Virus record (IMG/VR): IMGVR_UViG_3300025132_000101
Coordinates: 1-39,240 of that record
Length of the DNA: 39,240 nucleotides
Source of the DNA: a virus
Direction: 5' to 3' (one strand)
Under the pieces are notes generated by a model. It did not search any database, was not told the origin of the DNA, and was given only the letters and a program-made list of their open reading frames with translations. Both the position numbers and the translations under genes were made by a program. Each line of letters begins with the position of its first letter. Within the stretch, counting starts at the first letter, position 1. Shown here in pieces: positions 11,981 to 39,240 of the stretch.

Positions 11981-12625
11981 ATGAGATTTGCAGGATCAGG
12001 CGCTAAATTAAATATCACACCATTCCAGTTCTCAGGACGTGGTGGTAAAGGCATTGGTGCAGCTGGTGGTATGGCCACCGGTGCTGAAGCATTTCAAGCA
12101 GTCAGAAGTAGAGCACCTAAGTACGGAAACATTGGAAAGATAGGCATTGCCTCCCAAGGTGCTAAAGGACGCGCAGTATCTGCAGCCGAGGCCGCTGTGC
12201 ATAGAGCAGGGATGAGTGCTCAAGCTACGGTCAAAGCTTCTGAGATTAGATCGAAGTATATGAAGGACGCTGCTGCTAAGCAAGCAAAGGGTGCAATGAT
12301 TGGTAGTGCATTAGGTGCTGTTGGATCTATTGCCTCAGCCTTCTCAGACGAGAAAACCAAAGATTGTATTGAGCGTCTTTACAGTGGTCTAGACATTATC
12401 CGCAACCTAGAGCCAGTAACCTTCCACTATACGGAAGAATATACTGATGAGCCATGGCGTATGCATTACGGCTTCATTGCTCAGGATTACGAAAGAGTAA
12501 TGCCTAATCAAGTGTATAAAGATCCTATAAGTGATCTACTGAAGATCAATACAAATGAGTTGATCGCAGTTTTGGTAAAATCTATTCAGGAGCTTGAATC
12601 GCGCTTAGAGGCATTAGAAAAATGA
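11981..12625 (+). CDS. Short helical protein with C-terminal peptidase S74 (chaperone) domain
   Basis: 214 residues. Residues 1-120 are Ala/Gly-rich and helical, opening MRFAGSGAKLN and ending in a zipper (GAMIGSALGAVGSIASAF). Residues 122-214 match the peptidase S74 intramolecular chaperone: SDEKTKDCIERLYSGLDII with Ser122 and Lys127 at the places of the autoproteolytic Ser-Lys pair, then VTFHY...GFIAQDYERVMP and a C-terminal coiled coil (VKSIQELESRLEALEK). S74 domains normally trimerise a beta-helical fibre and cut themselves off. Here there is no fibre body, which is odd. The ATG follows three bases after the previous stop, and the next gene begins by ATGA overlap. Confidence 0.85.
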   Translation: MRFAGSGAKLNITPFQFSGRGGKGIGAAGGMATGAEAFQAVRSRAPKYGNIGKIGIASQGAKGRAVSAAEAAVHRAGMSAQATVKASEIRSKYMKDAAAKQAKGAMIGSALGAVGSIASAFSDEKTKDCIERLYSGLDIIRNLEPVTFHYTEEYTDEPWRMHYGFIAQDYERVMPNQVYKDPISDLLKINTNELIAVLVKSIQELESRLEALEK

Positions 12626-13194
12626 ATCCTACTGACGAAGAGTACAAACGACTTTTAGAAATGAGCATGCTTACAGGAGTATTTCCTGGCATGCCTACCA
12701 AAGATGCCGGAAGTGGTTTAGGTAACCTGTTGATGGAAGGTGCCGCTAGCTTAGGTCAAGGCGTTGCTAAGTACGATCGAGCAGTCACACCTATTGCTAA
12801 TCAGGCACAGGATGCTTTGACTGGTGCTATCGGCCGTGCAGGCGGTGCAACCAAGTTGGGCAGTGCGGCTGGACGCTTTGCTGGTGGTGCTAGAGCTTTG
12901 GGACTTCTGAAAGCACTCCCCGCCGCTGGTGCTGTGGGTGGTGCATTGGGTGCTGGAGATATTGTCTTCGGTGGTGATAGTGCAGGCAATAAAGTTATGG
13001 ATGGCGCAGCAATGGCAGTCGGTGGAGCACTGGGTGCGGTAGGCGGACCGCTCGGGGTCGCTGCTGGTGCCGGGGTTGGTAAAATGGTTTCAGATGGCAT
13101 CCAAGGCATAGGCGGAATGTTGGGCATTGAGTCCCAAGAAGAACGCCGTGCACGTGAGATGGCTGAAATGCTTCGTCGTTCAGGTATGGTTTGA
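12622..13194 (+). CDS. Gly/Ala-rich membrane-active protein
   Basis: 190 residues, MNPTDEEYKRLLEMSML at the start. Most of residues 60-165 is Gly/Ala with hydrophobic residues (ALGLLKALPAAGAVGGALG; MAVGGALGAVGGPLGVAAG), a strong glycine-zipper pattern, followed by a charged tail (ESQEERRAREMAEMLRR). This composition is seen in proteins that insert into membranes or pack as helical bundles in phage cores. No enzyme motif. Start codon overlaps the previous stop (ATGA) and its own TGA overlaps the following ATG (TGATG). Confidence 0.75.
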   Translation: MNPTDEEYKRLLEMSMLTGVFPGMPTKDAGSGLGNLLMEGAASLGQGVAKYDRAVTPIANQAQDALTGAIGRAGGATKLGSAAGRFAGGARALGLLKALPAAGAVGGALGAGDIVFGGDSAGNKVMDGAAMAVGGALGAVGGPLGVAAGAGVGKMVSDGIQGIGGMLGIESQEERRAREMAEMLRRSGMV

Positions 13195-13982
13195 TGGCTT
13201 CCTCGTATAAGGATCTGATTCAACAAGGAAAAAGTAAGCGTAATGCTCTTGATTCCTTTATGGGCTTTTTTGGCCAAGGTGTTGACAATGAGAATTACAC
13301 ACCTGGAGTTGACGCTGACGGAAACGTTAAGGCCCTAACACTAGGTGAGCGGCTTAGTGGTATATCAATGGCTGAAAAAGAAGCCGCCAACGCTCGGGTA
13401 CAACTAAGGGATGCAAAGAGGGACGAAAACTTTCAGTATTTAGAAGCAGAAGGCCAAATGACGGAAGGCGACCTAGGTCGTGACATTAGTCGTGCTGATC
13501 TTGCTAAGAAAACACGTGACTTTTCAGAGGTAAAAACCGCTGAAACCGCTGCACGAGTGGAAGGCGTCGATGCACAAGCAATTGCTGAGTTGAAAAATAG
13601 TGGCTTAGGAGCTACCGCAATCAGCTCTGGTTTGTACGACTTGACCAGAAAGCAGAAAGAGTTTAACGCAAACGAAACGTTAAGAAATAGCCCTGGATAT
13701 CAAGATCGAATAGAACAGCGAGATTATCAACGAAATCGTAACCGCATTGCGGATGAGCGTCTAGCTTTCGATCGGGAGCAGGCTGCACAGCTACGTCGTG
13801 ACCAGCTGATTGAAAACAAAGAGGCGCGTATCGGTCAGCAAGAGATGCAACTTCTTCAGCTGAACCGCGACGAACGCATCCACAACGCAAACCTTGAGTA
13901 CAAGCGTGAGCAAGATGCTGCATCACGTAGGGAGAACATCGCAGCTGCACTCAGCAGCCTTGCAATGTCATTCTTTGCTTAA
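13194..13982 (+). CDS. Coiled-coil protein
   Basis: 262 residues beginning MASSYKDLIQQGKSKRNAL. Residues 55-130 are charged helices (MAEKEAANARVQLRDAKRD), and residues 165-255 form a long Arg/Glu/Gln-rich coiled coil (DYQRNRNRIADERLAFDRE; NLEYKREQDAASRRENIA) that ends in a short hydrophobic tail (LSSLAMSFFA). No membrane span beyond the tail and no catalytic motif. Its TAA abuts the TAA of the convergent hydrolase gene without a spacer (TAA|TTA). It could be a structural core protein; the family is not recognised. Confidence 0.75.
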   Translation: MASSYKDLIQQGKSKRNALDSFMGFFGQGVDNENYTPGVDADGNVKALTLGERLSGISMAEKEAANARVQLRDAKRDENFQYLEAEGQMTEGDLGRDISRADLAKKTRDFSEVKTAETAARVEGVDAQAIAELKNSGLGATAISSGLYDLTRKQKEFNANETLRNSPGYQDRIEQRDYQRNRNRIADERLAFDREQAAQLRRDQLIENKEARIGQQEMQLLQLNRDERIHNANLEYKREQDAASRRENIAAALSSLAMSFFA

Positions 13983-14909
13983 TTACTGATAGCTGTAGTG
14001 GAAGAAGTTACCCTTGTCATGGAACATGGGATCTTCTTCTGCAACTCTATTTTTAAGCTGTGTTTGTCCTTTGAAATCTGTACGGCCTTCAAGGATATTC
14101 ATTGCATTAGTAATCTTTCTGCGACCTTCTTCAGAACCGAGGTGTGCAGCTAAGGCGTCGTCATATTTAGCCAAACCTTTGGTGATAGCTTCGTATTGCT
14201 TAGGCTGATAAATAACATCAGAGATTGTGTTTGGGAAATCTCCAGAAAGCTTTCTATTAATCACAGATGCTGCAACTGCATACTCATCATCCGTGCCCCG
14301 CTCAGCTTCAGCAGATACAACGTATGCGAGATCCTTCATCTCACCGGGAGTAAGGTTCGCAACAACATCACTTACATCAACACCCTCAAGTTTGCTTGAC
14401 GTACGAGGAGCAGGCGAATCTACAGTTGATGAAGTATCAGTAGAAGTAGACGAAGGTTTGAATACTTCTAAAGGTGAGTTCTTGAGATCTTCTAGGGCTT
14501 TTTTGCCCTCAGTCATTTTCCCAGTGATATGCTCCCTGATACCACCATCATCAAACTCAGCACGCTCAATAGGCTTGCGTAAACCGTCTGCTGCAAACTT
14601 ACCGGCTGCAGCAATAGCTCCTGCTTTTCGTAAACCTGATTTAGCATCAGCTCTTGCCTTGGCATTCTCTACATCTATTTCCGCAAGTTTCATTTTAGCG
14701 TCTATATTTATCCCCGTGATTGTCATATTCTTCTTATTCTCAATCTCCTGCTGGAAATTAAGAGCATCCTGCTTAAGACCTTCAGCAGCTAGATCTCCAT
14801 AGTTTGGTGCATAAGCACGAGCAGTACTTTGGATGCTTGCACTAGCACTGGCTGCATTACGACCTGCAGCTATGTAGTTACTTGCACTGGAAGCAGCGGC
14901 GAAGCGCAT
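13983..14909 (-). CDS. SleB-type cell wall hydrolase with virion-type N-terminus
   Basis: 308 residues on the strand opposite to its neighbours. Residues 1-115 are Ala-rich and helical, opening MRFAAASSASNYIAAG and ending in a short zipper (AGAIAAAGKFAADGL), in the style of the proteins at 11559 and 11981. A Ser/Thr/Pro linker (about 150-170) leads to a Hydrolase_2/SleB-like domain (about 185-308): LTPGEMKDLAYVVSAEAERG with the candidate catalytic Glu201, AVAASVINRKLSGDFP and QPKQYEAI. SleB enzymes cut peptidoglycan glycan strands. Either a virion-borne hydrolase used at entry or the lysis enzyme. No holin is evident. A CTACAAT lies 24 bases before the start. Confidence 0.8.
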   Translation of the reverse strand: MRFAAASSASNYIAAGRNAASASASIQSTARAYAPNYGDLAAEGLKQDALNFQQEIENKKNMTITGINIDAKMKLAEIDVENAKARADAKSGLRKAGAIAAAGKFAADGLRKPIERAEFDDGGIREHITGKMTEGKKALEDLKNSPLEVFKPSSTSTDTSSTVDSPAPRTSSKLEGVDVSDVVANLTPGEMKDLAYVVSAEAERGTDDEYAVAASVINRKLSGDFPNTISDVIYQPKQYEAITKGLAKYDDALAAHLGSEEGRRKITNAMNILEGRTDFKGQTQLKNRVAEEDPMFHDKGNFFHYSYQ

Positions 14910-14952: not shown

Positions 14953-17900
14953 GTGTCTAACCTGGCAGAGATGATTCCCAATAACAAGAAGGCTAATAAC
15001 AATCAGAGAGCGCAGGTTACCGATTTTTTTGCTCGTACAGGTGGTGCTAATACTGCTAAAAACTCCACGGTAAAAGGAGCTCGTGGTGCTAGTGCTCAGC
15101 AAGGCATCATAAACCAACAAACAGGCCAATCTGTGTTAGATGTCCGTGGCGGATCTGCCCAACAAGGCCGACCGACGATGACAACCCGTGATGCGGGAGG
15201 CATGCAAAGTGCAGCCGTCAATCCGGTTATCAGACCCAGTAATTCTGGTATGCAAAGTGCAACCAGCAACCCGGTGATCACAGGCCAGGGGAACAACGTT
15301 GTGGGATCGATGCCAGCGAATCCAACTTTCACCCCGCTGCCAGTAAGAGAAATAGCTCAGAACCCAGCCGTTGTTGGTAATCCTACTGCTTCTAACCCAT
15401 TCGATAACAGTGGTGCTGGGCAGTTTAACTTAGCCCAGGCGAGGGATAATCTGTATTCAAATGCTGGAGCAGACAATCCAGAAGTACAAGCCATAAGAAA
15501 TACCTTCCAGGCCAACATGGTGCAGTCTGCGTTTGACACGCAGATGGCCACTCAGATGGCTTATCAGAACCAGGCTATTGCTTCACAGGCAATGAACCAG
15601 GCTGCCAACCTGGAAATGCGGAACCAAGCGCAATTGATGCAGGATGAGTACACGTACGGCATGAACCGTATGGGTGCTGAGTTTGCATTCCAGGATCGCT
15701 TTGCCACTAACGATGCTCAGCGTCAGACAGCATTGGGTTCGCATATGGCGAACTTGCAGCAGAATCAAACAATGCTGGAGGGCACGGAAAACCGGCTCAA
15801 CATGCAAGAGCAGGGCCAACAGAACAGGCTGACGCAACAGCAGTTGAGCAATCAGCAATTGGCTCAGCTGAATGCTGGATTCCAAAATCAACAGCTGATG
15901 CAGAACGTTGCTGGTCAGCAGCAGATGGATCAGCTTAACGCCAACATTGGCAGCCAGGAGCGGATGCAGCAGGTTGCTGGTCAACAGCAATTAGCGCAAA
16001 TCCTGGGACAAGGAGATCAATCATTCCGTTTGCAGGGTCAGCTAGGTGAGCAACAGTTGGCTCAACTAAATGCTGGATTCCAAAATCAACAGCTGATGCA
16101 GAACGTTGCTGGTCAACAGCAAATGGATCAGCTGAATGCCAACATTGGCAACCAGCAGCAGATGCAGAACGTTGCTGGTCAGCAGCAGTTACAGCAAATT
16201 AATGCATCAGGCGATCAGCAAAGGCTAAGTCAATACCAGCTGAGCAATCAGCAGTACCGTCAACAACAACTGCAAGGTGACCAGGCTCTTCAACAGATTC
16301 GTGTCCAAGGCAACCAGCAATTCCGTTTAGGCGAGCAGCAGAATCAGGCTGCCTATCAGCAGCAACAGTTGCAAGGCAATCAAGCGCTGCAACAGATCCG
16401 TGGACAAGGTAACCAACAGTTCCGTTTACAAGGACAGTTGGGTAACCAGCAAATGGCTCAGCTGAATGCCCAGTTAGGTAGTCAGCAGCAGATGCAAAAT
16501 GCTGACATACAGAATCAGCAATTCTTGCAAAACCAAGCTGGGCAGCAAGCGCTGCAGCAGATCCGTGGCCAAGGTAATCAGCAGTTCCGTTTACAAGGAC
16601 AGCTTGGTAACCAGCAGATGGCTCAGCAGCGACTGCAAGGCCAACAGTCCATGCAACAGCTGAACCGTCAAGGTGCGCTGGACTATCGCATGCAGCAGAC
16701 GTTGGGTAACCAACAAATGGCTCAGCTGAATGCTCAAAACCGTGGTCAGCTTCAACAAATTAATGCCCAAGGTAACCAGCAGTTCCGTTTAGGTGCTCAG
16801 CAAAACCAAGCTGCAATGCAGCAGCTAAATGCTCAAAACCGTGGTCAGCTTCAACAAATTAATGCTCAAGGTAACCAACAGTTCCGCTTACAAGGACAGC
16901 TTGGTAACCAGCAGATGGCTCAGCTAAATGCTCAGAACCGTGGTCAGCTTCAACAAATTAATGCTCAGGGCAACCAACAGTTCCGTTTAGGTGCTCAGCA
17001 AAACCAAGCTGCAATGCAACAGCTGAACCGTCAAGGTGCATTGGATTATCGGATGCAGCAGACGCTGGGTAACCAGCAAATGGCACAGCTTAATGCATCA
17101 AACCAAGCTGCACTACAACAGCTGAATGCTCAAAACCGTGGTCAGCTTCAGCAACTGAACCGTCAAGGTGCGTTGGATTATCGGATGCAAGGACGTGTCG
17201 GTAACCAGCAGATGGCACAGCTGAATGCATCAAACCAAGCTGCGCTGGACCAGCTGAACCGTCAAGGTGCATTGGATTACCGAATGCAAGGACGCCTTGG
17301 TAACCAGCAGATGGCTCAGCTTAATGCATCAAACCAAGCTGCGCTGCAGCAACTGAACCGTCAAGGTGCATTGGATTATCGGATGCAAGGACGCCTTGGT
17401 AACCAGCAGATGGCTCAGCTTAATGCAGCAAACCAAGCTGCAATGCAGCAACTAAACCGTCAAGGTGCATTGGATTACAGAGCACAAGATCAGCTGGGAC
17501 GCCAGCAAATGGCTCAGCTTAATGCTCAGAACCGTGGTCAGGTTCAACAAATTAATGCACAGGGTGCTCAGGACCTAAACAGAATTGGTGCGCAAGGTCG
17601 CCAAGACCGTGCTGCCATCGGTGCGCAAGGTAACCAAGATGCGCGACTTGCAAACATCACTGGTCAGCAAGCTATTGATCAACTGCGCCAACAGGGTGTT
17701 AATGAGCAGGAGCTACAAGGCATGACTGGGCAGCAAGCTATAGCTCAGTTGAGGGAGCAAGGTCGCCAAGATCGCGCCAACATGGCAGGTCAGGGTGAAC
17801 AAGAGCGATTGAACATTGCCGCTCAAGGTCAGCAGAACTTAAACCTGCAAAACATGACCGGTGATCAAGCTATTGATCAGCTTCGTGCTCAAGGTGCAAA

Positions 17901-18654
17901 TGAGCAAGAGCTGGCTGAAATCACAGGTGATCAGGCCCTCGCTCAGCTGAGAGAACAGGGGCGCCAAGAACGAGCGAGTATTGCAGCTCAGGGTGCACAA
18001 AGGCTGGCTTTACAAAACATGACCGGAGACCAGGCAATCGAACAGCTTCGATCGCAGGGTGTCAACGAACAAACTCTGGCTTCGATGACAGGCGACCAGG
18101 CTCTGCAACAGCTGCGAACTCAAATAAGGAGCCAAGAGCGTATGCAAGCTGAGTCTGGGCTACAAGCCCTGCAACAGATTGATAGAGATACTAGCCGCCA
18201 GTTGGCTATAGGGGAACAGTCTGGTGAACAGGAACTAGCCAACATTGGCGCTCAGGGTGTTGAAGCCGTTAGGCAGATTCGAGAACAGAACCAATCAACC
18301 GAGCGTCAGCAACGTGAATCGGGCCGTCAAGCCCTGCAGCAGATTGGTGCAACTAGCAATGCTGATGTCAGAAGTATTGGTGCTCAAAGCCGAGCTAATC
18401 TCGCTAGCGGCGCTCAGCAAGGTCTTTTGGCTTTACAGCAGATTGATGCTAGCGGACTTCAGAATAGGCTAAACATTCGTGCTCAAACCCGTTCTGATCT
18501 GACAAGAGGTCGTCAGGAAGGTGATCAGGCTATGGACCAGATTCGTGGCCAAGGTGAGGAGAGCCGCGCACTCCAAGACAATGAGCAAATGAACGTTCAG
18601 AGAAATCGCAAGAATGAGTCTAAATACGCACGTAGTTTGGCAGGTATGTTCTAA
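14953..18654 (+). CDS. Giant Gln-rich protein of 82 tandem 11-residue repeats
   Basis: 1233 residues from GTG 14953. Residues 1-170 are low-complexity (Asn, Gly, Ser, Pro). Residues 305-1206 divide without one gap into 82 units of 11 residues, such as QLNRQGALDYR, MQGRLGNQQMA and QLNASNQAALQ. Hydrophobic residues sit near positions 1/2, 5 and 10; Gly is at position 6 in about 57 units by hand count. An 11-residue period is the hendecad of coiled coils (three helical turns), so a very long rod is likely, about 135 nm if fully helical. Tape measure, internal core or long fibre are possible roles. The repeat phase is kept although units differ strongly, so selection maintains the length. Confidence 0.85.
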   Translation: MSNLAEMIPNNKKANNNQRAQVTDFFARTGGANTAKNSTVKGARGASAQQGIINQQTGQSVLDVRGGSAQQGRPTMTTRDAGGMQSAAVNPVIRPSNSGMQSATSNPVITGQGNNVVGSMPANPTFTPLPVREIAQNPAVVGNPTASNPFDNSGAGQFNLAQARDNLYSNAGADNPEVQAIRNTFQANMVQSAFDTQMATQMAYQNQAIASQAMNQAANLEMRNQAQLMQDEYTYGMNRMGAEFAFQDRFATNDAQRQTALGSHMANLQQNQTMLEGTENRLNMQEQGQQNRLTQQQLSNQQLAQLNAGFQNQQLMQNVAGQQQMDQLNANIGSQERMQQVAGQQQLAQILGQGDQSFRLQGQLGEQQLAQLNAGFQNQQLMQNVAGQQQMDQLNANIGNQQQMQNVAGQQQLQQINASGDQQRLSQYQLSNQQYRQQQLQGDQALQQIRVQGNQQFRLGEQQNQAAYQQQQLQGNQALQQIRGQGNQQFRLQGQLGNQQMAQLNAQLGSQQQMQNADIQNQQFLQNQAGQQALQQIRGQGNQQFRLQGQLGNQQMAQQRLQGQQSMQQLNRQGALDYRMQQTLGNQQMAQLNAQNRGQLQQINAQGNQQFRLGAQQNQAAMQQLNAQNRGQLQQINAQGNQQFRLQGQLGNQQMAQLNAQNRGQLQQINAQGNQQFRLGAQQNQAAMQQLNRQGALDYRMQQTLGNQQMAQLNASNQAALQQLNAQNRGQLQQLNRQGALDYRMQGRVGNQQMAQLNASNQAALDQLNRQGALDYRMQGRLGNQQMAQLNASNQAALQQLNRQGALDYRMQGRLGNQQMAQLNAANQAAMQQLNRQGALDYRAQDQLGRQQMAQLNAQNRGQVQQINAQGAQDLNRIGAQGRQDRAAIGAQGNQDARLANITGQQAIDQLRQQGVNEQELQGMTGQQAIAQLREQGRQDRANMAGQGEQERLNIAAQGQQNLNLQNMTGDQAIDQLRAQGANEQELAEITGDQALAQLREQGRQERASIAAQGAQRLALQNMTGDQAIEQLRSQGVNEQTLASMTGDQALQQLRTQIRSQERMQAESGLQALQQIDRDTSRQLAIGEQSGEQELANIGAQGVEAVRQIREQNQSTERQQRESGRQALQQIGATSNADVRSIGAQSRANLASGAQQGLLALQQIDASGLQNRLNIRAQTRSDLTRGRQEGDQAMDQIRGQGEESRALQDNEQMNVQRNRKNESKYARSLAGMF

Positions 18655-19196
18655 TGAGTACTTCAACTAAGGCAGCAATTGGGAGCAAGGTATACATCAG
18701 CTACGTTGACGAGTGGCTAGATTCGCTTACCGCTGCTGATGCAGAGGACTTCAAAGAATTTGCTGAGTTCACTCCCAGCATTATTGAAATTTGGGTATAT
18801 GCAGGAATCCTGCAGTATCCAGGATCATTCAACGATATGTCTCGTTGGGTCAAGATGAAGTACAAGAAGCTTGACCGTCGTGGGATCCTCAACAGTGAAA
18901 TCACCGCTTTGCACTCTGACATTCAAGAGCTTCGGATGGCGATTACGTCTGGAGAGATTAAGGGTGATAACGGGGCTGCAAGGTTGGGTGCACTTGAGAA
19001 AGAACTCAGGAGCCATATTGAAACAAGTGAGCGCATGAATAAGTCTACTGACAAACGAGGACTTATTTTGGCAGGTGCTGACAAAGTCATGCGTGAGATG
19101 ACAATGATCTTTAAAGATGATCCACAGTTTGCTGAAGCAATTGAAAATGCTATCCAGGCATCGTGGGCCAAGCTTTACTCAGAGCTGACGAACTGA
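18654..19196 (+). CDS. Hypothetical protein, small-terminase candidate
   Basis: 180 residues starting MSTSTKAAIGSKVYISYVDE. Predicted all-helical: an acidic first third (LTAADAEDFKEFAEFTPS), then WVKMKYKKLDRRGILNSEI, a central coiled coil (EITALHSDIQELRMAITSG and LGALEKELRSHIETSERMN), and a C-terminal helix (FAEAIENAIQASWAKLYSEL). Small terminases are short, helical, with a DNA-binding N-terminus and a coiled-coil centre, and lie just before TerL, as here with one gene between. This is a context guess; no helix-turn-helix is clear. Start codon overlaps the previous stop (TAATG). Confidence 0.65.
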   Translation: MSTSTKAAIGSKVYISYVDEWLDSLTAADAEDFKEFAEFTPSIIEIWVYAGILQYPGSFNDMSRWVKMKYKKLDRRGILNSEITALHSDIQELRMAITSGEIKGDNGAARLGALEKELRSHIETSERMNKSTDKRGLILAGADKVMREMTMIFKDDPQFAEAIENAIQASWAKLYSELTN

Positions 19197-19480: not shown

Positions 19481-21019
19481 ATGTCAGGCGCTAGTATCTC
19501 ATTAGCTTATCGTCGCAACGCGATGATGACAGCGACAAAAGTAACGACAAAGCCGCCTAGTGAAGAGGTATTAGAAGCAAGAGATAATTTTATGGCTTTC
19601 TGCAAAACAATGGGAAAGCCCCCAGCCAAACACATGATGGAATGGCATAATGAATTATGTACCGGCAATGATACAGAATGTCTAATGGGGATCGGGGGAG
19701 CAAATACTTCGATCCTCGCGCCCAGAGGATCTGCGAAAAGCACTGTCCTTGGTTTGTTTGCTGCATGGATGATTGGACGACATGCAGCTGCCAAGACAAT
19801 GCTGCGGATATTATATATAGCTTATATGGTTGATATAAGCAGAGCTAAGTCAGCAACTATAAAAGGGATCCTTGCCAGCCCTAAATATCGAGAGATATTT
19901 CCAATGGTTAGATTATCAAAGATAAAACGAAGCGACGAATACTGGTCGATTGATTATGAATTTGCAGGTGTTGATACAGCGGGAGAAGAGGCGTTTACCA
20001 TAGCGTGTGGAGGTCTCAAGGGTGCGATCACATCTAAGCGATCTCAACTCGTACTTATCGATGACCCTATTAAATCCGCTGCGTCCATCTCAAACCCTGA
20101 CATACGTCGTGAGATGGAACAGACATGGAGTAACGTTATTGCGCCGACAATGTTTCAGGGCGCAAGGGCCATATGCTTGGGGACTAGATTCCATTTTGAC
20201 GATATCCATGCCACCCTCTTCGTACCGAAAAACAACTGGAAGCAGATTGTTCAAAAAGCAGTAATTACTGACGACGAAGGTAGGCAACGTTCATATTGGC
20301 CTGATATGTGGTCAATGAAGTATTTGAACGAACGTAAGCTGGAGGACAGGATTGCATTTGCATATCAGTATTTAAACACTGCTGTACAGTCGGGTGATGT
20401 TGGACTTTCGCCCGAGTTAATTGTCAAGGGTGAAACTCCGGACTCATTCGACTGCATTGGCGTAGGTATTGACCTTAGTGCTGGCTTGAATGAAAGAAAT
20501 GACTATACAGTGTTTACGTTGGGTGGCATCGATAATGGCAAGATCTACTTGATTGACCAACGTCGGATCAAGACAATGGGCAATATTGAGAAAATGGATG
20601 CACTTTGTGAAATGCTGGCTGACTGGAACATCCTTTTGGAAAATGAGGATGGCAATTATTTCCCTACAACATCATCTTGTGTAATCTGGCCAGAAGCTGT
20701 TGCATATCAGTCGTCATTCGAAGGTGACTTTAAGCGAGTAATGTTCGAGCAACGTGGTTTGTACAACCTTGCCTGTAGTCCAGTCAAAGGATTTAAAGGC
20801 GACAAGCTATCGCGTTTGCGTGGTGTTCTCGGACTTTATGAACACAAGAAAGTTATTTGGAACAAGTGGCGCAAGTGGGACATCTTGGAAGATGAACTTC
20901 TAAACTTTGGTCAGACAGCACACGATGACTGTGTTGACTCAATGGTGCTTACTATGGGAGGTCTGTTGAGAAGGGGTCAGTTACAATTAGAATATAATGA
21001 TGATAGCTTCTCCGAGTAA
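19481..21019 (+). CDS. terL: Terminase large subunit
   Basis: 512 residues, within the usual size range. The enzyme packages DNA into the procapsid: an N-terminal ATPase drives translocation and a C-terminal RNase H-like nuclease cuts the concatemer. Walker A is APRGSAKST (residues 80-88), Walker B LVLIDDP (190-196), and the coupling-type motif CLGTRFHFDD lies at 232-241. The nuclease domain has Asp331 (VGIDLSAG) and the Asp pair region HDDCVDSM (481-488). An AGGGGA lies 7 bases before the ATG. It precedes the structural and portal genes, the standard order. All key residues are present, so it should be active. Confidence 0.95.
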   Translation: MSGASISLAYRRNAMMTATKVTTKPPSEEVLEARDNFMAFCKTMGKPPAKHMMEWHNELCTGNDTECLMGIGGANTSILAPRGSAKSTVLGLFAAWMIGRHAAAKTMLRILYIAYMVDISRAKSATIKGILASPKYREIFPMVRLSKIKRSDEYWSIDYEFAGVDTAGEEAFTIACGGLKGAITSKRSQLVLIDDPIKSAASISNPDIRREMEQTWSNVIAPTMFQGARAICLGTRFHFDDIHATLFVPKNNWKQIVQKAVITDDEGRQRSYWPDMWSMKYLNERKLEDRIAFAYQYLNTAVQSGDVGLSPELIVKGETPDSFDCIGVGIDLSAGLNERNDYTVFTLGGIDNGKIYLIDQRRIKTMGNIEKMDALCEMLADWNILLENEDGNYFPTTSSCVIWPEAVAYQSSFEGDFKRVMFEQRGLYNLACSPVKGFKGDKLSRLRGVLGLYEHKKVIWNKWRKWDILEDELLNFGQTAHDDCVDSMVLTMGGLLRRGQLQLEYNDDSFSE

Positions 21020-22224: not shown

Positions 22225-24489
22225 ATGAGCAACACTAATCCACAGTTTCAGGAAATCCTCGATTCTGCAAAAGCCCGTCGTGGGGATACAAATACAGACA
22301 CAATGATTGTGGCGTCCCATCTGGCTCAGATGCGGACGTTCATTCTGCGTAGAGGGATTGAGTTTTACTGTGAGCAAGATTCATACGGCAAGCGTCGTGA
22401 TTTTCTGCAAAGAATCTACGACGAGAACATGCTTGAGATGAAGCTTGATAGCATCATCGATCATTTCTTATGTGACGGTCAAGGGCTGTTCTACTTCCGA
22501 CCCTCAGGTGAAGTTTATCAACTGCTTTATTTTCCTAAAGATAGATACCGGTGTTACCGCGATCAAAACAATGAAATTAACAACGTTGTATTGATCTACA
22601 GTTTTGCTGTCAAGGGGAAAGGGTTTGCTGGATCTGCTCCTTCTACATATGGTGCTGCGCCACAGAGAGGTGGTCGTAAAAAGTACATCAGACTATCCGT
22701 ATTCAAAGATCGCATTGAGCAAACAATATCTGATGAAAAGATTGAGTTTGACGATAAGGGCACAGGCTTCCCTTCGCAAGCAAAGCCCGGTTCTACAGAA
22801 ACTCTGACAAACAGTCTTGGCTTCATCCCTGCCGTTGAGATCTTCAACCATCTTGATTGTACTGGTGAGACGTCAGGCCGTGGTGAATTTGATTGGCTGA
22901 GCCATCAAATTATGTTCCACGACGAACTCGTTCGCAACGTCCGAAAGAACATGAAGTTCTTCGGAAACCCCACGTTGGTCTCCAGCCGACCGAAGCATGA
23001 CATTGTTGAGAGTGGAAATGACAGTGGTACAAGACCAACCATCTCTTCAGCTGCTGGCTTCAAGCCAATGCAGGCACCGGGGCAACCTTTCGGTGGTCCA
23101 TCACCTTTAGATGGTCAAATCAAAGTTCCCAGGGTTATTGCAAACCTTGAGCCAACTGACCGCGTCAGCTACATGACACCTGACGCTGTTAGTGGTGACC
23201 AGAACCTTTATGTCAAGCAGTACCGAAGCGAGATTCGTCTTGCACTGGGGGGTGTGGATGACATTGATATCAACACCGCTTCTACTGCGTATGAGATCAA
23301 ATCTCTGTATGGCCGTGTAGCTGCTACTGCAGAGAAGAAAGCTAAAGCCATGTTTGAATTCGGGCTTTGCAAAGTGTTGGCAATGATGATTCAACATGAA
23401 GAGTTCTTGTTTGAAGAGTCTTTTGCCCGTGCTATCGGCTTGCAGAAACCTGTCATTCCTTTGGAAGAAGAATTCAATGGTGATCAGGCTGCATATGAAT
23501 TGGCATTAGGCAATTACCAGCAATTGCAGGCAGCTTTTCTTCAGCAAAGAGACCAACAGTTCCGTGCTAAACTTGACATAGGAGACATACCCCCAGGAGT
23601 AGTTGGTCTAATTCCAGATGGAAGCACTAAAGTTTCTTGGCGATGGACTGGCGAAGTATTTGAAGATGACACTCAAGACATACTTAATAACAGTATTGTC
23701 GTTAGGAACCTTCAAGAACTAGGTGTTGATTCAATTGAGGCACTTAAGTACCTCTTCCCAGGAAAGACAGATGAAGAGAGAGCAGCAATGCTTTCTGGTT
23801 ATCCGTTCCGAATGGTTCAACAAACCCAACAATCTCTGCAATCATTTATTGGGTTGTTGGGACAACTATATCAGTTGCCTCATCCTCAAACACCAAATCT
23901 ACCGTTGGCATCAGATCCCAACCTAGATATTACAGGTTTCCTATACAGATCTCTAGAATTTTTACGTAAGGAGTTAAGTTACAGTGGAAGGTATCAACCA
24001 AGCAGTAGCGACAAGCGCCCCAGCAAGCTCAACGACGCCGACAGGCTCCGCTCCGAGCGCGGTCAGCCCGTCCGCGATGAACGCAGGATTAAGTTACCAG
24101 GCGTCACCGACGACGGCTCAAGCACCAGCAGCTCCGGCACCGATTTACCAACAGCAGGCGGCCCCGGCAGCGACGGGGAATCCATGGCAGGAAGCCTTCC
24201 AGGCTTTGAGCGCAAGTCTGAATACGCCCAGCCAATCCCAAGCCCAGGTTCCGTACTCGGCATATCAAACACCGACGAACCAAGTCAGCTACCAAGCACC
24301 ATTGGGTTCAGTTCTGCAACAGCCGCAAGCCCAGTATTCGGCAGCCCAGACGTTCAGTCCCCAAGCTTCAACCCAGGAGTATTCGGCGCAGGTGGCGGAC
24401 CAGGCCCAATTGGCGGCATTGGCCCAGGCCCAATACCTCAACAGCCAGTCCCAGTACAGCCAGCCCCTCGCCGCAGAAAGCGCAAGTGA
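22225..24489 (+). CDS. Portal protein with long overprinted C-terminal tail
   Basis: 754 residues. Portals form the dodecameric ring at the head vertex through which DNA passes. The first 585 residues are consistent with a portal: N-terminal helical region (IILRRGIEFYCEQDSYG-like), wing strands around DRYRCYRDQNNEINNVVLIY, and the segment YRSEIRLALGGVDDIDINT followed by a long stem-type helix (LYGRVAATAEKKAKAMFEF). Residues from about 587 on are Ser/Pro/Gly-rich and disordered, ending in PAPRRRKRK. That tail is encoded over the same DNA as the start of the next gene in another frame. Assignment rests on position after TerL plus overall pattern. Confidence 0.8.
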   Translation: MSNTNPQFQEILDSAKARRGDTNTDTMIVASHLAQMRTFILRRGIEFYCEQDSYGKRRDFLQRIYDENMLEMKLDSIIDHFLCDGQGLFYFRPSGEVYQLLYFPKDRYRCYRDQNNEINNVVLIYSFAVKGKGFAGSAPSTYGAAPQRGGRKKYIRLSVFKDRIEQTISDEKIEFDDKGTGFPSQAKPGSTETLTNSLGFIPAVEIFNHLDCTGETSGRGEFDWLSHQIMFHDELVRNVRKNMKFFGNPTLVSSRPKHDIVESGNDSGTRPTISSAAGFKPMQAPGQPFGGPSPLDGQIKVPRVIANLEPTDRVSYMTPDAVSGDQNLYVKQYRSEIRLALGGVDDIDINTASTAYEIKSLYGRVAATAEKKAKAMFEFGLCKVLAMMIQHEEFLFEESFARAIGLQKPVIPLEEEFNGDQAAYELALGNYQQLQAAFLQQRDQQFRAKLDIGDIPPGVVGLIPDGSTKVSWRWTGEVFEDDTQDILNNSIVVRNLQELGVDSIEALKYLFPGKTDEERAAMLSGYPFRMVQQTQQSLQSFIGLLGQLYQLPHPQTPNLPLASDPNLDITGFLYRSLEFLRKELSYSGRYQPSSSDKRPSKLNDADRLRSERGQPVRDERRIKLPGVTDDGSSTSSSGTDLPTAGGPGSDGESMAGSLPGFERKSEYAQPIPSPGSVLGISNTDEPSQLPSTIGFSSATAASPVFGSPDVQSPSFNPGVFGAGGGPGPIGGIGPGPIPQQPVPVQPAPRRRKRK

Positions 24490-25943: not shown

Positions 25944-26882
25944 ATGCCTCAGCAAAAAATAACTAGTGATCCTGTGAGAGCTTATCTTAAGGACATTGGC
26001 CGAATACCTCTCCTTGCGCATGACGAAGAGATTCTTCTTGGTCGAAAAGTTCAGCGTATGATTGAACTCAACGAAATGAAAAAAGAGCTTGACCTAGATA
26101 ATGCACAACTTGCCGAATCACTTGATGTGCCTGTTCGTCAAGTACTGCGTGAACTTCGTGATGGTAGACGTGCAAAGGACAAGATGGTTACTGCTAATCT
26201 TCGCCTAGTTGTCAGCGTTGCAAAAAAATACACCAAAAGAAATATGGAGCTATTAGATATCATTCAAGAAGGAACTATTGGACTTATCCGTGGCGTTGAA
26301 AAGTTTGATCCTGGTCGTGGCTACAAGTTTTCTACCTACGCCTACTGGTGGATTCGCCAGGGGATCACTCGTGCTATCGCGGAGAAGAGTAGAGCCATAC
26401 GCTTACCGATCCATGTTACTGAAAACCTCAACAAACTTAAGAAAGCCCAGCGTGAATTAAGTCAGCTTAACGGACATCTGCCTACTGTTGAAGAGCTTGC
26501 CGAAGAACTGAACATCACTCAGGATGATGTAAAAGATCTTATGTGCAAAGCACGTCAGCCAACCTCACTTGAAATTAAGATTGGTGAAAACCATGACACT
26601 GCTCTGGTCGACATGCTGGAAGACGCAGATCAAACACCTGAGGTTAACTTAGAAGCAGCTTGTATCAAGGAAGATATTCGTAATGAGATCAGTATGCTGC
26701 CCCGTCTACAAGCTGAAGTAATTAGCATGCGCTATGGGATTGGTGATGACACACTTGAGCCGCTTTCTATGACAGCCATTGGCCAGGTACTAAACATGAG
26801 CCGCGATCGTGTCCGCACTTTAGAGCATAAAGCACTCCGCACTCTTCGGGAGAATGGAAGTCAGGTTGCAGAATATCTGTAA
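25944..26882 (+). CDS. Sigma-70 family factor, group 2 type
   Basis: 312 residues. Region 1.2 (DPVRAYLKDIGRIPLL, residues 9-24), then a non-conserved helical insert with an HTH-like segment (AQLAESLDVPVRQVLRE), region 2 (about 80-155: NLRLVVSVAKKYTKRN, DIIQEGTIGLIRGVEKFD, YKFSTYAYWWIRQGITRA), region 3 (about 160-235) and region 4 (about 245-305: AEVISMRYGIGDD and the -35 helix SRDRVRTLEHKALRTL). No region 1.1, as in group 2 factors. The sequence style is that of cyanobacterial group 2 sigma factors, so it was probably captured from a host. It should redirect host RNA polymerase. Its place among capsid genes suggests a late-gene role, which is inference. Confidence 0.93.
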   Translation: MPQQKITSDPVRAYLKDIGRIPLLAHDEEILLGRKVQRMIELNEMKKELDLDNAQLAESLDVPVRQVLRELRDGRRAKDKMVTANLRLVVSVAKKYTKRNMELLDIIQEGTIGLIRGVEKFDPGRGYKFSTYAYWWIRQGITRAIAEKSRAIRLPIHVTENLNKLKKAQRELSQLNGHLPTVEELAEELNITQDDVKDLMCKARQPTSLEIKIGENHDTALVDMLEDADQTPEVNLEAACIKEDIRNEISMLPRLQAEVISMRYGIGDDTLEPLSMTAIGQVLNMSRDRVRTLEHKALRTLRENGSQVAEYL

Positions 26883-28746: not shown

Positions 28747-29901
28747 ATGTGGATTGATAATGATTTTCCGAAACTTCTTGGTGCAGAACTTTACCGTCCG
28801 CACCCGGCATACATCATTGAGATGGCTGTGGAACCTGTGGTGGTACATGACTTCAGCAAGCAACCCGGTCAGACAGTTCAACTGGACCGCTATCGCTTCT
28901 GGGGTAAGCCTGGCACCAAGGAGTCTCGTGAGCGTACCGCCGACCAAACTCTTGGAACCGCTTCTGCCCGTAACATCGTTAAAGACAAAGTTTTGGTGAC
29001 TCTTCGTGAGTACACCGGACCTGCTGATACACGTGATTCTGCACAACCTTCTACCTTTAAGGTAGCCCGAGAGACCCTGATCACTGCTCAGCGTCTGCTT
29101 CTCGATACCGGCAACCTGAATGTTTTTCATCAGTCCATCGGTTCGCTAACCCTTCTGGACGACTATCGCCGCTGGCGTGATCGCGTTTTCGCCAACGAAC
29201 TCCTGAAAGCAGAAGCCAATGGCGCTGCTTCTAAGGATCAAGGTGGTTACTACCTGCCCGGCAGTAAGGTGAAAACTGCTGGTTCCGGTGGAACTCTGGG
29301 TGTTACTTACGCTACAGGTGCTTCTGCCAAGTTCGATGTCACCACCGACCTGCTTGAGGTGGTTAAGGACATGCGTAAGCGCAACGTCCCTACCTTCTCT
29401 GATGGTTACTACCGCTGCATCGTCGATCCGACAGCGATGATGCACCTGCGCCAAAACAGCGACTTCCGTGAGATTGCTCGTTACCCCGGTAGCGGCATGA
29501 TCAACCCGATGTCCCCTGCTGAAGCTCCTAACGCCAACTTCTACCAAGGCATGGGTCCTGCCTATGGCCAAGCTGGTTTCGTTGCTGGACAACCTGTTAT
29601 GCCTTCTGGCTTTCTCTTTGAAGGCGTCCGTTGGTTTGAGTCTACCAACCTGCCTGAGACCACTTACAACCTCGTGATTAACGATGCTGGGTCTAGCTCT
29701 GCTGCTGATTACACAGCTAGTCAGCTGATCTTCTTCGGTCCTCAAGCTGTAGGTGTGGGTATTGGTGGTAACAACGCTCAGATTTTGTTGAACAACAACG
29801 ATGACTTCAGTCGTTTCATCATCATGATCTGGTCATTGTTCGCCGGGTTTGAAGTTCTGAATAAGGACTTCATCACTGTTGGTTACTCTTTCGTATATTG
29901 A
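28747..29901 (+). CDS. Major capsid protein candidate
   Basis: 384 residues, cytoplasmic and beta-rich without membrane or signal segments, as expected for an HK97-fold capsid protein. Position (after portal and scaffold) and the strongly C-biased codon choice typical of highly expressed genes support this. N-terminal helix region VVVHDFSKQPGQTVQLDRY, a loop region with GTKESRERTADQT, and C-terminal strands (GVGIGGNNAQILLNNNDD; LNKDFITVGYSFVY). A GGAG lies 11 bases before the ATG. No separate protease gene was found, so a maturation protease may be absent or lie elsewhere. The call is by context and composition. Confidence 0.8.
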   Translation: MWIDNDFPKLLGAELYRPHPAYIIEMAVEPVVVHDFSKQPGQTVQLDRYRFWGKPGTKESRERTADQTLGTASARNIVKDKVLVTLREYTGPADTRDSAQPSTFKVARETLITAQRLLLDTGNLNVFHQSIGSLTLLDDYRRWRDRVFANELLKAEANGAASKDQGGYYLPGSKVKTAGSGGTLGVTYATGASAKFDVTTDLLEVVKDMRKRNVPTFSDGYYRCIVDPTAMMHLRQNSDFREIARYPGSGMINPMSPAEAPNANFYQGMGPAYGQAGFVAGQPVMPSGFLFEGVRWFESTNLPETTYNLVINDAGSSSAADYTASQLIFFGPQAVGVGIGGNNAQILLNNNDDFSRFIIMIWSLFAGFEVLNKDFITVGYSFVY

Positions 29902-36780: not shown

Positions 36781-39240
36781 ATGGCAAATCGTCGTCCTAT
36801 AGTCCTTAACAATGCCGGTTATCAGGAATTACTGCCTAGTGGAGATCAAATAGTAGGGGATGCTACGCAAACTGAAAAAGGTTTGATGAGCGCTTCTGAC
36901 AAAGTTAAAATAGATGGAGTAGAAGCTGGAGCAACTGCTGATCAAAGTGGTGCTGAAATTAAAGCAGCATATGAACAGGAGGCTAATGCATATACAGACG
37001 CTAAAAATACAAAGCTTGCTGGAATTGAGACGGGAGCTACGGGAGATCAAAGTGCAGCTGAGATTCGTGTCTTGGTTGCTGCTGCTGATAACAGTAATGT
37101 ATATACCGACGCTGATAGCAGCAAACTGGCAGGAATAGAAAGCGGAGCCACAGGAGATCTCACTGGCGCCGAAATTAAATCACTATATGAAGCAGAAACA
37201 AGCGCATATACAGATACTAAAGACACTAAACTTACAGGTATCGAGGCCGGTGCAACTGCTGATCAAACTGGTGCTGAAATTAAGGCACTGTATGAAGCAG
37301 AGACAGGCGCATATACAGATACTAAAGACACTAAACTTACAGGTATCGAAGATGGTGCAACCGCTGATCAGACGAATGCTGAGATCCGCAGCGCAGTTGA
37401 TGCTGCCTCAGACTCCAACGTCTTTACTGATGATGATCATACTAAACTGGGTAGTATTGAATCTGGTGCACAAGCTAATGTGGCCCACAATCTGAGCTAC
37501 ACAGCGTCTAGTCGTGCTTTAGATATTAGTAATGGGACTGGGATAACCTTACCAGAAGTAACTACAAGTGATGCTGGACTAGCCAGCTCTACCGATAAAA
37601 GTAAGCTAGATGACATAGAGGTAGGGGCTACAGCTGATCAAACCGCCGCAGAGATCCGTTCATTGGTTGATTCTGCCTCAAACTCCAACGTCTTTACTGA
37701 TGCTCAGAAAGCAAAGGTTGATGACATCACTTCAGCAAACCTTACTGACCTAGACAACCTGCCTACAAATTTAGCTGGGAAGGCTGATCTTGACGGTAAC
37801 GGAAAAGTTGTTACATCTCAAATTCCCGATTTAGCTATAACTCAATTTCTTGGAACAGTTTCAACTGTTAGTAATCTGACCACTCTTTCTGGACAGCTTG
37901 GCGACTTTGCCTCTGTAACAAATACTGGGATTCTGTACGTCATTGTGAGTAATAATGGCAGCTCTGCAAGCGACTGGCTTGCTATGCAATACCCTGCATC
38001 CACAACAAACATTGGATACGTTGCTTCAACTCGTGCAGTTACATCTAACACAGGAACAGGCTTTACCTTTCCCGAAGTAGCAGTAAGTGGTAACTCTGGT
38101 TTAATGACTGGAGCACAAGCTTCAAAACTACAGGGCATTGCAGCAGGCGCTGAAGTAAACGTGGGCACTGATTTAACTTATGACGCGTCGACTCGTACGG
38201 TTGAAAGCAGCACTGGTGCTGATGCAACCATTCCTCACGTAGTTTCTAGTGGTAGCTCAGGTTTAATTAGTGGAACTGATAAAGCAAAGTTAGATGCAAT
38301 TCAATCAGCGGCACAGGTTAATGTTGGTTTAGATGGAGTTACAACAATTAGTGGCAATAGTGATAATAACATTACCTTAGGTACAGATAAAATTGTATTA
38401 AATGCTGGAACAGGCTCCGCTCACTTTGATGGCAACGTTGGCATAGGCACGAGTAGTCCGGACGCTAAATTAAATATTAAGCAAGGTACTGAGGCCATTA
38501 GTGATGGTATTCGTTTGACACGGTCAAACGGAAACGCATCTTACACACACTATATTGATACAAGTTCAAAATATAATATCGTAAATAGTAGCCCTGGAAA
38601 TGCGGATCATACATTCCTTACAATTGCCTCAGATGGTAACGTCGGTATTGGCACAACTACTCCCGCTACGCGGTTAGAAGTAAAAAATAACGATAACATG
38701 CCTGGTGGAACTATTCAAAGATGGACTGCAGATACTGGGTCAAACGTACGAGCCTGTAGCTTCTTGGCTCCTGAAACAGACGATCTCGTCTCACCGTTTA
38801 CCTTCAAAACTAACAACTCTTGGAATTTCCGAATTGACACCACAGATGCTTTAACAATCGCAGCTAACGCTAGTGTCGGCATTGGCACGACTAGTCCTAG
38901 TCAGAAGCTAGAAGTGGCTTCAACCGCTCCTAGGATAAGAATTACAGATAATGATACTACTGCTTCTACAGCGACTTCTTACCTTGAGTTTTACGGTAGT
39001 GATGCAAGAGCTGGAGTTATCTACACCGATTCCAGTGGATTAAACGTTCGAGCTGATAATACTGGCGGAGGAAAGCTTAGTTTCTGGACAGGAACCTCTT
39101 CAAAGATGTTAATTGATGCCTCGGGCAACGTTGGCATTAATACGACTGATCCAAAGGAAAAGTTAGACGTAAATGGTGATATTTATCTGTCATCTACAAA
39201 TGAATACGTAAAATTTGCCGTAGGAAATTCCGGTACAGAG
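36781..39240 (+). CDS. Long tail fibre, 3' end outside window
   Basis: 820 codons without a stop up to the window end. Residues 35-310 are tandem repeats around GATADQTGAEIKALYE, AYTDTKDTKLTGIE and SNVFTDAQKAK, each with a GIE(A/S/D)GA turn. A pattern of alternating beta and coiled segments like this is common in cyanophage fibres. From about residue 545 onward, repeats around NVGIGTSSP, NVGIGTTTP, SVGIGTTSP and NVGINTTDP appear; these usually precede a peptidase S74 chaperone, which should lie just beyond the window. A trimeric receptor-binding fibre is likely. A 42-bp direct repeat lies at about 37203 and 37308 (105 bp apart), which suggests recombination-driven repeat expansion. Confidence 0.88.
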   Translation, partial: MANRRPIVLNNAGYQELLPSGDQIVGDATQTEKGLMSASDKVKIDGVEAGATADQSGAEIKAAYEQEANAYTDAKNTKLAGIETGATGDQSAAEIRVLVAAADNSNVYTDADSSKLAGIESGATGDLTGAEIKSLYEAETSAYTDTKDTKLTGIEAGATADQTGAEIKALYEAETGAYTDTKDTKLTGIEDGATADQTNAEIRSAVDAASDSNVFTDDDHTKLGSIESGAQANVAHNLSYTASSRALDISNGTGITLPEVTTSDAGLASSTDKSKLDDIEVGATADQTAAEIRSLVDSASNSNVFTDAQKAKVDDITSANLTDLDNLPTNLAGKADLDGNGKVVTSQIPDLAITQFLGTVSTVSNLTTLSGQLGDFASVTNTGILYVIVSNNGSSASDWLAMQYPASTTNIGYVASTRAVTSNTGTGFTFPEVAVSGNSGLMTGAQASKLQGIAAGAEVNVGTDLTYDASTRTVESSTGADATIPHVVSSGSSGLISGTDKAKLDAIQSAAQVNVGLDGVTTISGNSDNNITLGTDKIVLNAGTGSAHFDGNVGIGTSSPDAKLNIKQGTEAISDGIRLTRSNGNASYTHYIDTSSKYNIVNSSPGNADHTFLTIASDGNVGIGTTTPATRLEVKNNDNMPGGTIQRWTADTGSNVRACSFLAPETDDLVSPFTFKTNNSWNFRIDTTDALTIAANASVGIGTTSPSQKLEVASTAPRIRITDNDTTASTATSYLEFYGSDARAGVIYTDSSGLNVRADNTGGGKLSFWTGTSSKMLIDASGNVGINTTDPKEKLDVNGDIYLSSTNEYVKFAVGNSGTE

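What the first reader, a model, noticed from the sequence alone, without database searches (positions are those of the whole stretch)
14953..18654. 82 uninterrupted hendecads in one phage protein
Seen: residues 305-1206 fall into 82 consecutive 11-residue units with no insertion or deletion, although units diverge strongly (from QLNRQGALDYR to LQNMTGDQAID). Gly holds position 6 in about 57 units, which is unusual for a helix. Known: 11-residue periodicity gives hendecad coiled coils; 902 residues at 1.5 A rise would be about 135 nm. Inference: a molecular ruler (tape measure) or long flexible rod; the Gly may mark kinks or a non-canonical fold.
Basis: partly seen in the sequence, partly recalled or inferred. 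Interest (0 to 1): 0.78.

Follow-up and report, generated by a model that had tools for sequence, protein, structure and literature searches.

The report
Length-variable helical phage DNA-delivery protein (inferred)
A marine virus of bacteria carries a giant protein built from 83 eleven-residue helical units, the longest of a newly recognised family whose length changes almost only in steps of eleven or four residues, and which probably helps to carry viral DNA through the cell envelope.

Summary
The protein is the longest member of a family absent from PHROGs, Pfam and the PDB: conserved ~123-residue N-domain, array of 0 to 83 units, conserved ~31-residue C-tail, next to the large terminase gene in contigs related to cyanophage S-EIV1. 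Across 8,938 array residues the 42 register changes are 39 of +4, two of +8, one of +7, although other indel sizes would be detected; proline is absent from 10,603 array residues. This is evolutionary evidence for a continuous alpha-helix whose phase matters end to end. A ruler is not supported: near-identical phages differ 83 to 23 units, some members have none, and S-EIV1 is classed as a podovirus. The gene forms a fast-diverging cassette with a peptidoglycan lysin (catalytic domain swapped among six Pfam families) and a helical protein. Best explanation, inferred: a DNA-ejection protein that works like phiX174 H or T7 gp15, without detectable homology. Virion location and oligomer are untested; weak amphipathicity and low AlphaFold confidence over much of the array count against a simple coiled coil.

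The parts
14953..18654 (+). hendecad-array protein gene, 1233 aa, GTG start (ATG alternative at 14971)
15418..15816 (+). conserved N-domain (133 aa here, ~123 in most relatives), ends at invariant Gly288
   Evidence: HMM/alignment A1
15865..18570 (+). 82 consecutive hendecads (residues 305-1206); from Gly288 the phased array counts 83 units
18559..18651 (+). conserved C-tail (last 31 residues), in register with the array
13983..14909 (-). divergent virion-lysin-like gene, 308 aa: conserved N-part plus PF07486 cell wall hydrolase; enzyme domain differs in relatives
13191..13982 (+). helix-rich 263-aa protein with a hydrophobic C-end, third gene of the fast-diverging cassette
18654..19196 (+). 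conserved 180-aa protein directly downstream (also in S-EIV1, 37.5% identity); slow-evolving border of the cassette
19481..21019 (+). terminase large subunit (context)
22225..24489 (+). 754-aa virion structural protein, phrog_20475 (used to fetch relatives)
28747..29901 (+). major head protein, phrog_1357, 69% identical to S-EIV1 (context)

Best explanation
The gene encodes an internal virion (DNA-ejection) protein of a short-tailed, S-EIV1-related phage, probably of marine cyanobacteria. The N-domain and C-tail are the working ends; the array between them is an almost unbroken alpha-helix (11/3, with occasional 15/4 units) of evolvable length. On infection the protein would leave through the portal together with the neighbouring peptidoglycan hydrolase and the helical 263-aa protein, and several copies would line up as staves of, or an extension to, the conduit that carries DNA through the envelope. 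Gln/Asn/Arg-rich faces would touch DNA or water, as in the phiX174 H tube. Array length would be tuned to the envelope of each host rather than measure a fixed virion part. Shown: family, synteny, helix-phase grammar, absence of proline, rapid joint divergence, lysin swapping. Inferred: virion location, ejection, oligomerisation, DNA contact, host tuning.
For: Family and synteny: the N-domain occurs in 25 of 25 loci that reach at least 6.5 kb upstream of the 754-aa gene (in L072 as frameshifted pieces), and a minus-strand gene lies directly upstream in 39 of 39 loci examined (duplicates included). Catalytic classes among 32 of these lysins scanned: PF18013 in 7, PF18896 in 7, PF07486 in 3, PF01464 in 3, PF01832 in 2, PF01551 in 1. 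Helix phase: 42 register changes in 8,938 residues are +4 (39), +8 (2), +7 (1); inserted or deleted 1-10 residues are found exactly in 42-48 of 48 trials for every size. Internal control: gap runs in alignment A1 are 1-3 long in columns 1-60 and all 55 are exactly 11 in columns 61-146; leader lengths are scattered mod 11. No Pro in 10,603 array residues against 4.8% in ORFs over 150 aa of the loci. AlphaFold: L026 is one helix, residues 32-296, pLDDT about 90 in the array. Cassette divergence at TerL identity >= 0.9 (medians): downstream 180-aa gene 0.87, N-domain 0.43, lysin N-part 0.28, upstream protein 0.24. S-EIV1 is listed among Podoviridae (PMC9382816, passage). phiX174 H has hendecads and a tube lined by N/Q/R (PMC7354561, passages), and is the only one of 11 reference ejection/internal proteins tested with a clear period-11 signal (z 5.0). 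The T7 set combines a ~200-aa pore protein, a tunnel protein and a murein hydrolase (PMC8954989, passages).
Against: No virion proteomics or mutant exists for any member that I could find. No sequence link to T7, P22 or phiX174 proteins, and T7, P22 and P-SSP7 ejection proteins show no period-11 signal. Hydrophobic moment of the window array is 0.16 against 0.13 shuffled, and at or below shuffled in several relatives; a two-stripe pattern was no better than permuted columns (p = 0.49), so a tube is not indicated by the hydrophobic pattern. AlphaFold of window residues 150-1233 is nearly all helix but pLDDT is mostly 38-60 over residues ~300-590. No membrane segment in the protein. Some members have no array, so a tube of fixed need cannot depend on it. 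S-EIV1, the only named relative found, lacks the gene.
Confidence: 0.5

Rival explanations
1. Tape measure protein: the array sets the length of a long non-contractile tail, one unit per fixed step.
For: Some siphophage tape measures carry 11-residue (or 11/18) repeats and scale with tail length (PMC3271669 passages; PMC5099701 passages); conserved ends with a variable repeat middle fit. The TP901-1 line extrapolates to 127 aa at zero tail, not far from the array-less members here.
Against: 0-2 units in 9 of 47 members; 83 v 23 units in phages with TerL 94.5% and head protein 96.1% identical (window and L003), and 62 in L093 (N-domain 82% identical); no hydrophobic segment, whereas TP901-1 needs one; no tail-tube or chaperone hit among the window proteins scanned against PHROGs (a weak negative); S-EIV1 classed as podovirus.
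Confidence: 0.13
2. External rod or whisker: a coiled-coil fibre standing on capsid or neck, with the array as stalk.
For: Long proline-free helix with register conserved end to end; phage genomes do encode coiled-coil whiskers (recalled: T4 fibritin).
Against: Both ends are conserved and there is no variable receptor-binding head: the C-tail ends in Phe in about 43 of 46. Tail-fibre-like genes are separate (11981-12625 and 36781-39240). Linked instead to a peptidoglycan lysin.
Confidence: 0.12
3. Internal capsid protein with a structural role only (core, scaffold or DNA-organising rod), not ejected.
For: Helix-rich, Gln/Asn/Arg-rich, near terminase; no membrane segment.
Against: Scaffolds usually lie next to the head protein (recalled), here 10 kb away; net array charge ranges from +16 to -33 between relatives, unlike a DNA condenser; does not explain the linked lysin or the fast divergence.
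Confidence: 0.12
4. Lipid-coating 11/3 amphipathic helix, like alpha-synuclein or perilipin repeats (recalled), acting on the host membrane.
For: 11-residue repeats with a regular Gly and low hydrophobicity.
Against: Hydrophobic moment hardly above shuffled, and below it in several relatives; no consistent positive charge.
Confidence: 0.05

Closest known systems
phiX174 protein H (DNA pilot protein)
   Same: Hendecads, Gln/Asn/Arg-rich, delivery of DNA through the envelope; measurable period-11 signal
   Different: Three hendecads then heptads, decameric tube of 17 nm; here 0-83 units, Gly at one position, tailed dsDNA phage, no homology
T7 gp14/gp15/gp16 and P22 gp7/gp20/gp16 ejection proteins
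   Same: Podovirus context; a cassette combining helical proteins and a peptidoglycan hydrolase; fast divergence
   Different: No homology, no period-11 signal in T7, P22 or P-SSP7 proteins; the lysin is a separate, divergently transcribed gene
Siphophage tape measure proteins with 11-residue repeats (e.g. TP901-1)
   Same: 11-residue repeat arrays of variable number between conserved ends
   Different: No W/F marker, no hydrophobic region, extreme length change between near-identical phages, no long tail known in the lineage
Right-handed hendecad/pentadecad coiled coils (tetrabrachion, YadA stalk)
   Same: 11/3 and 15/4 units and 4-residue stutters are the theory's right-handed series (PMC4786415 passages; tetrabrachion recalled)
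   Different: Weak hydrophobic seam, Gly in the centre of it, Gln+Asn near 39% of the window array

Membership tests
hendecad alpha-helix / coiled coil | 11/3 periodicity and phase conservation | tested here: met
   Period 3.668; 11n+10 lengths in 30 of 44 members; 39 of 42 register changes are +4
hendecad alpha-helix / coiled coil | Helical backbone | tested here: met
   No proline in 10,603 residues; AlphaFold helix 32-296 in L026; window model nearly all helix but of low confidence over much of the array. Predictions only
hendecad alpha-helix / coiled coil | Hydrophobic seam and oligomer | tested here: inconclusive
   Moment 0.16 v 0.13 shuffled; clear seam only in the L035/L028 subgroup; oligomer not testable
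tape measure protein | Length proportional to tail length | not testable with these tools
   No micrographs; indirect evidence is against
tape measure protein | Hydrophobic (membrane) region | tested here: not met
   Highest 19-residue Kyte-Doolittle mean 0.36
tape measure protein | W/F marker at a fixed place of 11-residue repeats | tested here: not met
   No W and 10 F in 902 array residues
podovirus ejection proteins (T7/P22 type) | Sequence or profile homology | tested here: not met
   No significant PHROG, Pfam or PDB match to the N-domain or protein
podovirus ejection proteins (T7/P22 type) | Cluster of internal proteins with a murein hydrolase activity | tested here: inconclusive
   Cluster with an enzyme domain is there: minus-strand neighbour in 39 of 39 loci, enzyme domains; that the products are internal is inferred
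podovirus ejection proteins (T7/P22 type) | Packed in virion and ejected into host | not testable with these tools
   Needs proteomics and infection assays
phiX174 H-type pilot protein | Homology to H | tested here: not met
   One of 31 N-domains hit a PHROG named pilot protein at E 0.41, not significant
phiX174 H-type pilot protein | Hendecad helices rich in Gln/Asn/Arg | tested here: met
   function not tested

The most novel reading that the evidence does not exclude
A new kind of genome-delivery stave: tailed phages build their envelope-crossing conduit from single helices whose length is set by the copy number of a phase-locked 11-residue unit, with 4-residue stutters as almost the only other tolerated step, so that the reach of the conduit evolves by duplication, independently of the rest of the virion, together with an interchangeable peptidoglycan-cutting enzyme.
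Probability: 0.2. Interest if true: 0.85.

Novelty: new variant of a known kind. Interest (0 to 1): 0.62.

Why it matters
The family gives a rare evolutionary read-out of helix phase: tens of diverged natural sequences in which the permitted indels are the ones that coiled-coil theory predicts (11 and 4). It names a probable DNA-delivery cassette for a widespread but little-understood cyanophage lineage, and predicts that array copy number should follow host envelope, not virion size, which can be tested on isolates.

Tried and rejected
Homology: tblastn of the whole protein, of relative L073 and of the N-domain in 50,697 phage records gave no match (the low-complexity filter may hide the array, not the N-domain). 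A whole-record search of S-EIV1 with the N-domain profile found nothing; no S-EIV1 ORF in positions 1-76569 has a period-11 z above 3. A genome-contig scan found no relative. Foldseek against viral models found no match at E <= 0.001; the model is one long helix, so this says little.

A two-stripe (barrel-like) hydrophobic pattern looked plausible but failed a permutation test and is not claimed. Simple amphipathic membrane helix: rejected on moments. Ruler: rejected for the reasons given. A first phase walk that included the C-tail was noisy and was replaced by one on the array only, with a detection control. One search (fewer members) gave 32 of +4, 4 of +8, 1 of +7; one search is the one quoted. 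Rows dropped: near-duplicates L025, L049, L080, L084, L087, L089, L092, L094, L095, L096 and the frameshifted L030 in the mod-11 count; five arrays too short to walk. The 47 members still include frameshifted L030, and L060 and L088, whose unit counts are measured from an earlier point. Lysin length correlates negatively with array length (rho -0.52, n = 34, not corrected for kinship); not interpreted.

Literature: papers were seen only as search listings or 'find' passages, plus the outline of PMC8954989; the S-EIV1 description (PMC4542036) is not held. Searches for hendecad/phage and related terms listed no report of this family; subscription papers are not covered.
Full report
OBSERVATION. 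ORF 14953-18654 (+) encodes 1233 aa. Residues 305-1206 split into 82 units of 11 without indel, with Gly at position 6 in 57 of 82. Lag-11 identity is 0.222 (500 shuffles: mean 0.139, maximum 0.174), and large hydrophobics have a period of 3.668 over 902 residues. 99-bp duplications exist in the middle. Between eight adjacent 33-aa copy pairs, the nonsynonymous difference is half the synonymous one or less in six (0.03-0.38 v 0.18-0.78), 0.48 v 0.76 in one and 0.71 v 0.66 in one: mostly purifying selection on the units.

ORIGIN. The window is a 39,240-bp virus record. Its terminase matches Synechococcus phage S-EIV1 at 54.7%, and its head protein at 69%. Cyanobacterial hosts are an inference from this kinship.

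FAMILY. The 754-aa structural protein brought 80 loci (of 124 relatives found). A profile built from relative L031 finds the same N-domain upstream of terminase in every locus that reaches far enough (25 of 25 with at least 6.5 kb; in L072 the gene is frameshifted). Two further scans raised the number of members with the invariant Gly placed to 55, or 44 after removal of ten duplicates and one frameshifted copy. The architecture is constant: variable leader, N-domain, array, C-tail. The array runs from 0 to 83 units in 47 members measured; the window has the most. Where whole records were searched, 8 of 10 had a match, at one place each; S-EIV1 and one other contig had none.

THE INDEL GRAMMAR. 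From the invariant Gly to the stop the length is 11n+10 in 30 of 44 members, 19 of 31 clusters (P = 8e-13). A cyclic-phase walk through 8,938 array residues (40 arrays) finds no change in 25 arrays and 42 changes in 15: 39 of +4, two of +8, one of +7. The sites fall, by eye, into at least four sequence types (TDxN type; TQQ..RE type; L008; L027), so they are not one inherited event, although several in one array are clearly copies. The control shows that single insertions or deletions of 1 to 10 residues would have been called exactly in 42-48 of 48 trials per size. Within the N-domain alignment, gap runs in columns 1-60 are 1-3 residues, whereas all 55 in columns 61-146 are 11; leader lengths are scattered mod 11. 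Proline is absent from 10,603 array residues of 55 members, duplicates included, from the last 90 residues of 46 N-domains and from 46 C-tails. 11/3 and 15/4 are right-handed steps of coiled-coil theory, and +4 is its stutter (PMC4786415, passages). I take this as strong evidence for a continuous helix whose phase is under selection end to end.

STRUCTURE. AlphaFold gives L026 (297 aa, 32-row alignment) as one helix 32-296, pLDDT about 90 in the array although Gly is at position 6 of every unit. The window protein (residues 150-1233, 12 rows) is nearly all helix, but mean pLDDT is 61, mostly 38-60 over residues ~300-590, with high-confidence breaks at about residues 900-926 and 1021-1047. There the units read like Gly-capped turns, so some Gly may be kinks. 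Amphipathicity is weak: moment 0.16 v 0.13 shuffled in the window, and no better than shuffled in several relatives; only the L035/L028 subgroup has one clear stripe. I cannot say how many chains assemble.

SURROUNDINGS. In 39 of 39 loci examined the gene is preceded by a divergent minus-strand gene whose N-part is shared and whose C-part is an exchangeable peptidoglycan enzyme: among 32 scanned, PF18013 7, PF18896 7, PF07486 3, PF01464 3, PF01832 2, PF01551 1; one weak Glyoxalase hit is taken as chance, and some have no hit. Before it lies, in most loci, a helix-rich protein with a short hydrophobic C-end. These three diverge far faster than what borders them: at TerL identity >= 0.9 the medians are 0.87 for the downstream 180-aa protein (153 pairs), 0.43 N-domain (153), 0.28 lysin N-part (53), 0.24 upstream protein (37; near the level of unrelated proteins). 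Window against its close relative L003/G001: 96% (180-aa), 94.5% (TerL) and 82% (190-aa) outside; 43%, 48% and 51% inside the cassette.

FUNCTION. A short-tailed relative (S-EIV1 is listed under Podoviridae in PMC9382816, passage), two helical proteins and a peptidoglycan cutter together recall the ejection sets of T7 and P22 (PMC8954989, passages). Among 11 reference internal or ejection proteins only phiX174 H carries a clear period-11 signal, and its tube is lined by Asn, Gln and Arg (PMC7354561, passages). Hence the best explanation: an ejection protein working like H or gp15, not a member of either family. The ruler reading fails because close relatives carry 83 (window), 62 (L093) and 23 (L003) units, L003 with TerL 94.5% and head protein 96.1% identical, and some members have none. 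None of this shows virion location; that remains the decisive gap.

NOVELTY. No significant PHROG, Pfam or PDB match and no paper found in the searches named. I file it as a new variant of a known kind (phage DNA-delivery proteins), with the caution that the kind itself is inferred.

Noticed in passing
window 13983-14909 (-) and relatives: Virion-lysin-like gene with a shared N-part and a catalytic domain swapped among six Pfam families between related phages.
   Followed up: partly
L024 1749-2765 (-) and 2892-3965 (-): Two tandem lysin genes with near-identical N-parts and different C-terminal domains, a possible snapshot of domain exchange by duplication.
   Followed up: no
L019 464-1276, L027 1633-2445: Endolysin-like gene (phrog_10051 in L019; L027 similar in sequence) in place of the helix-rich protein upstream of the lysin.
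   Followed up: no
L030 about 850; L072 5980-6800: Family gene broken by frameshifts, real or assembly error.
   Followed up: partly
window 14953: GTG start without an obvious Shine-Dalgarno sequence; an ATG at 14971 is an alternative.
   Followed up: no
L002 15533-18351 (S-EIV1 AHV82210-AHV82213): At the same place S-EIV1 has unrelated proteins, two of them Gly-rich with hydrophobic stretches, perhaps its own ejection set.
   Followed up: no
window 25944-26882: RNA polymerase sigma-factor-like gene (phrog_351) inside the structural region.
   Followed up: no
window 36781-39240: Tail-fibre-like gene running off the contig end.
   Followed up: no
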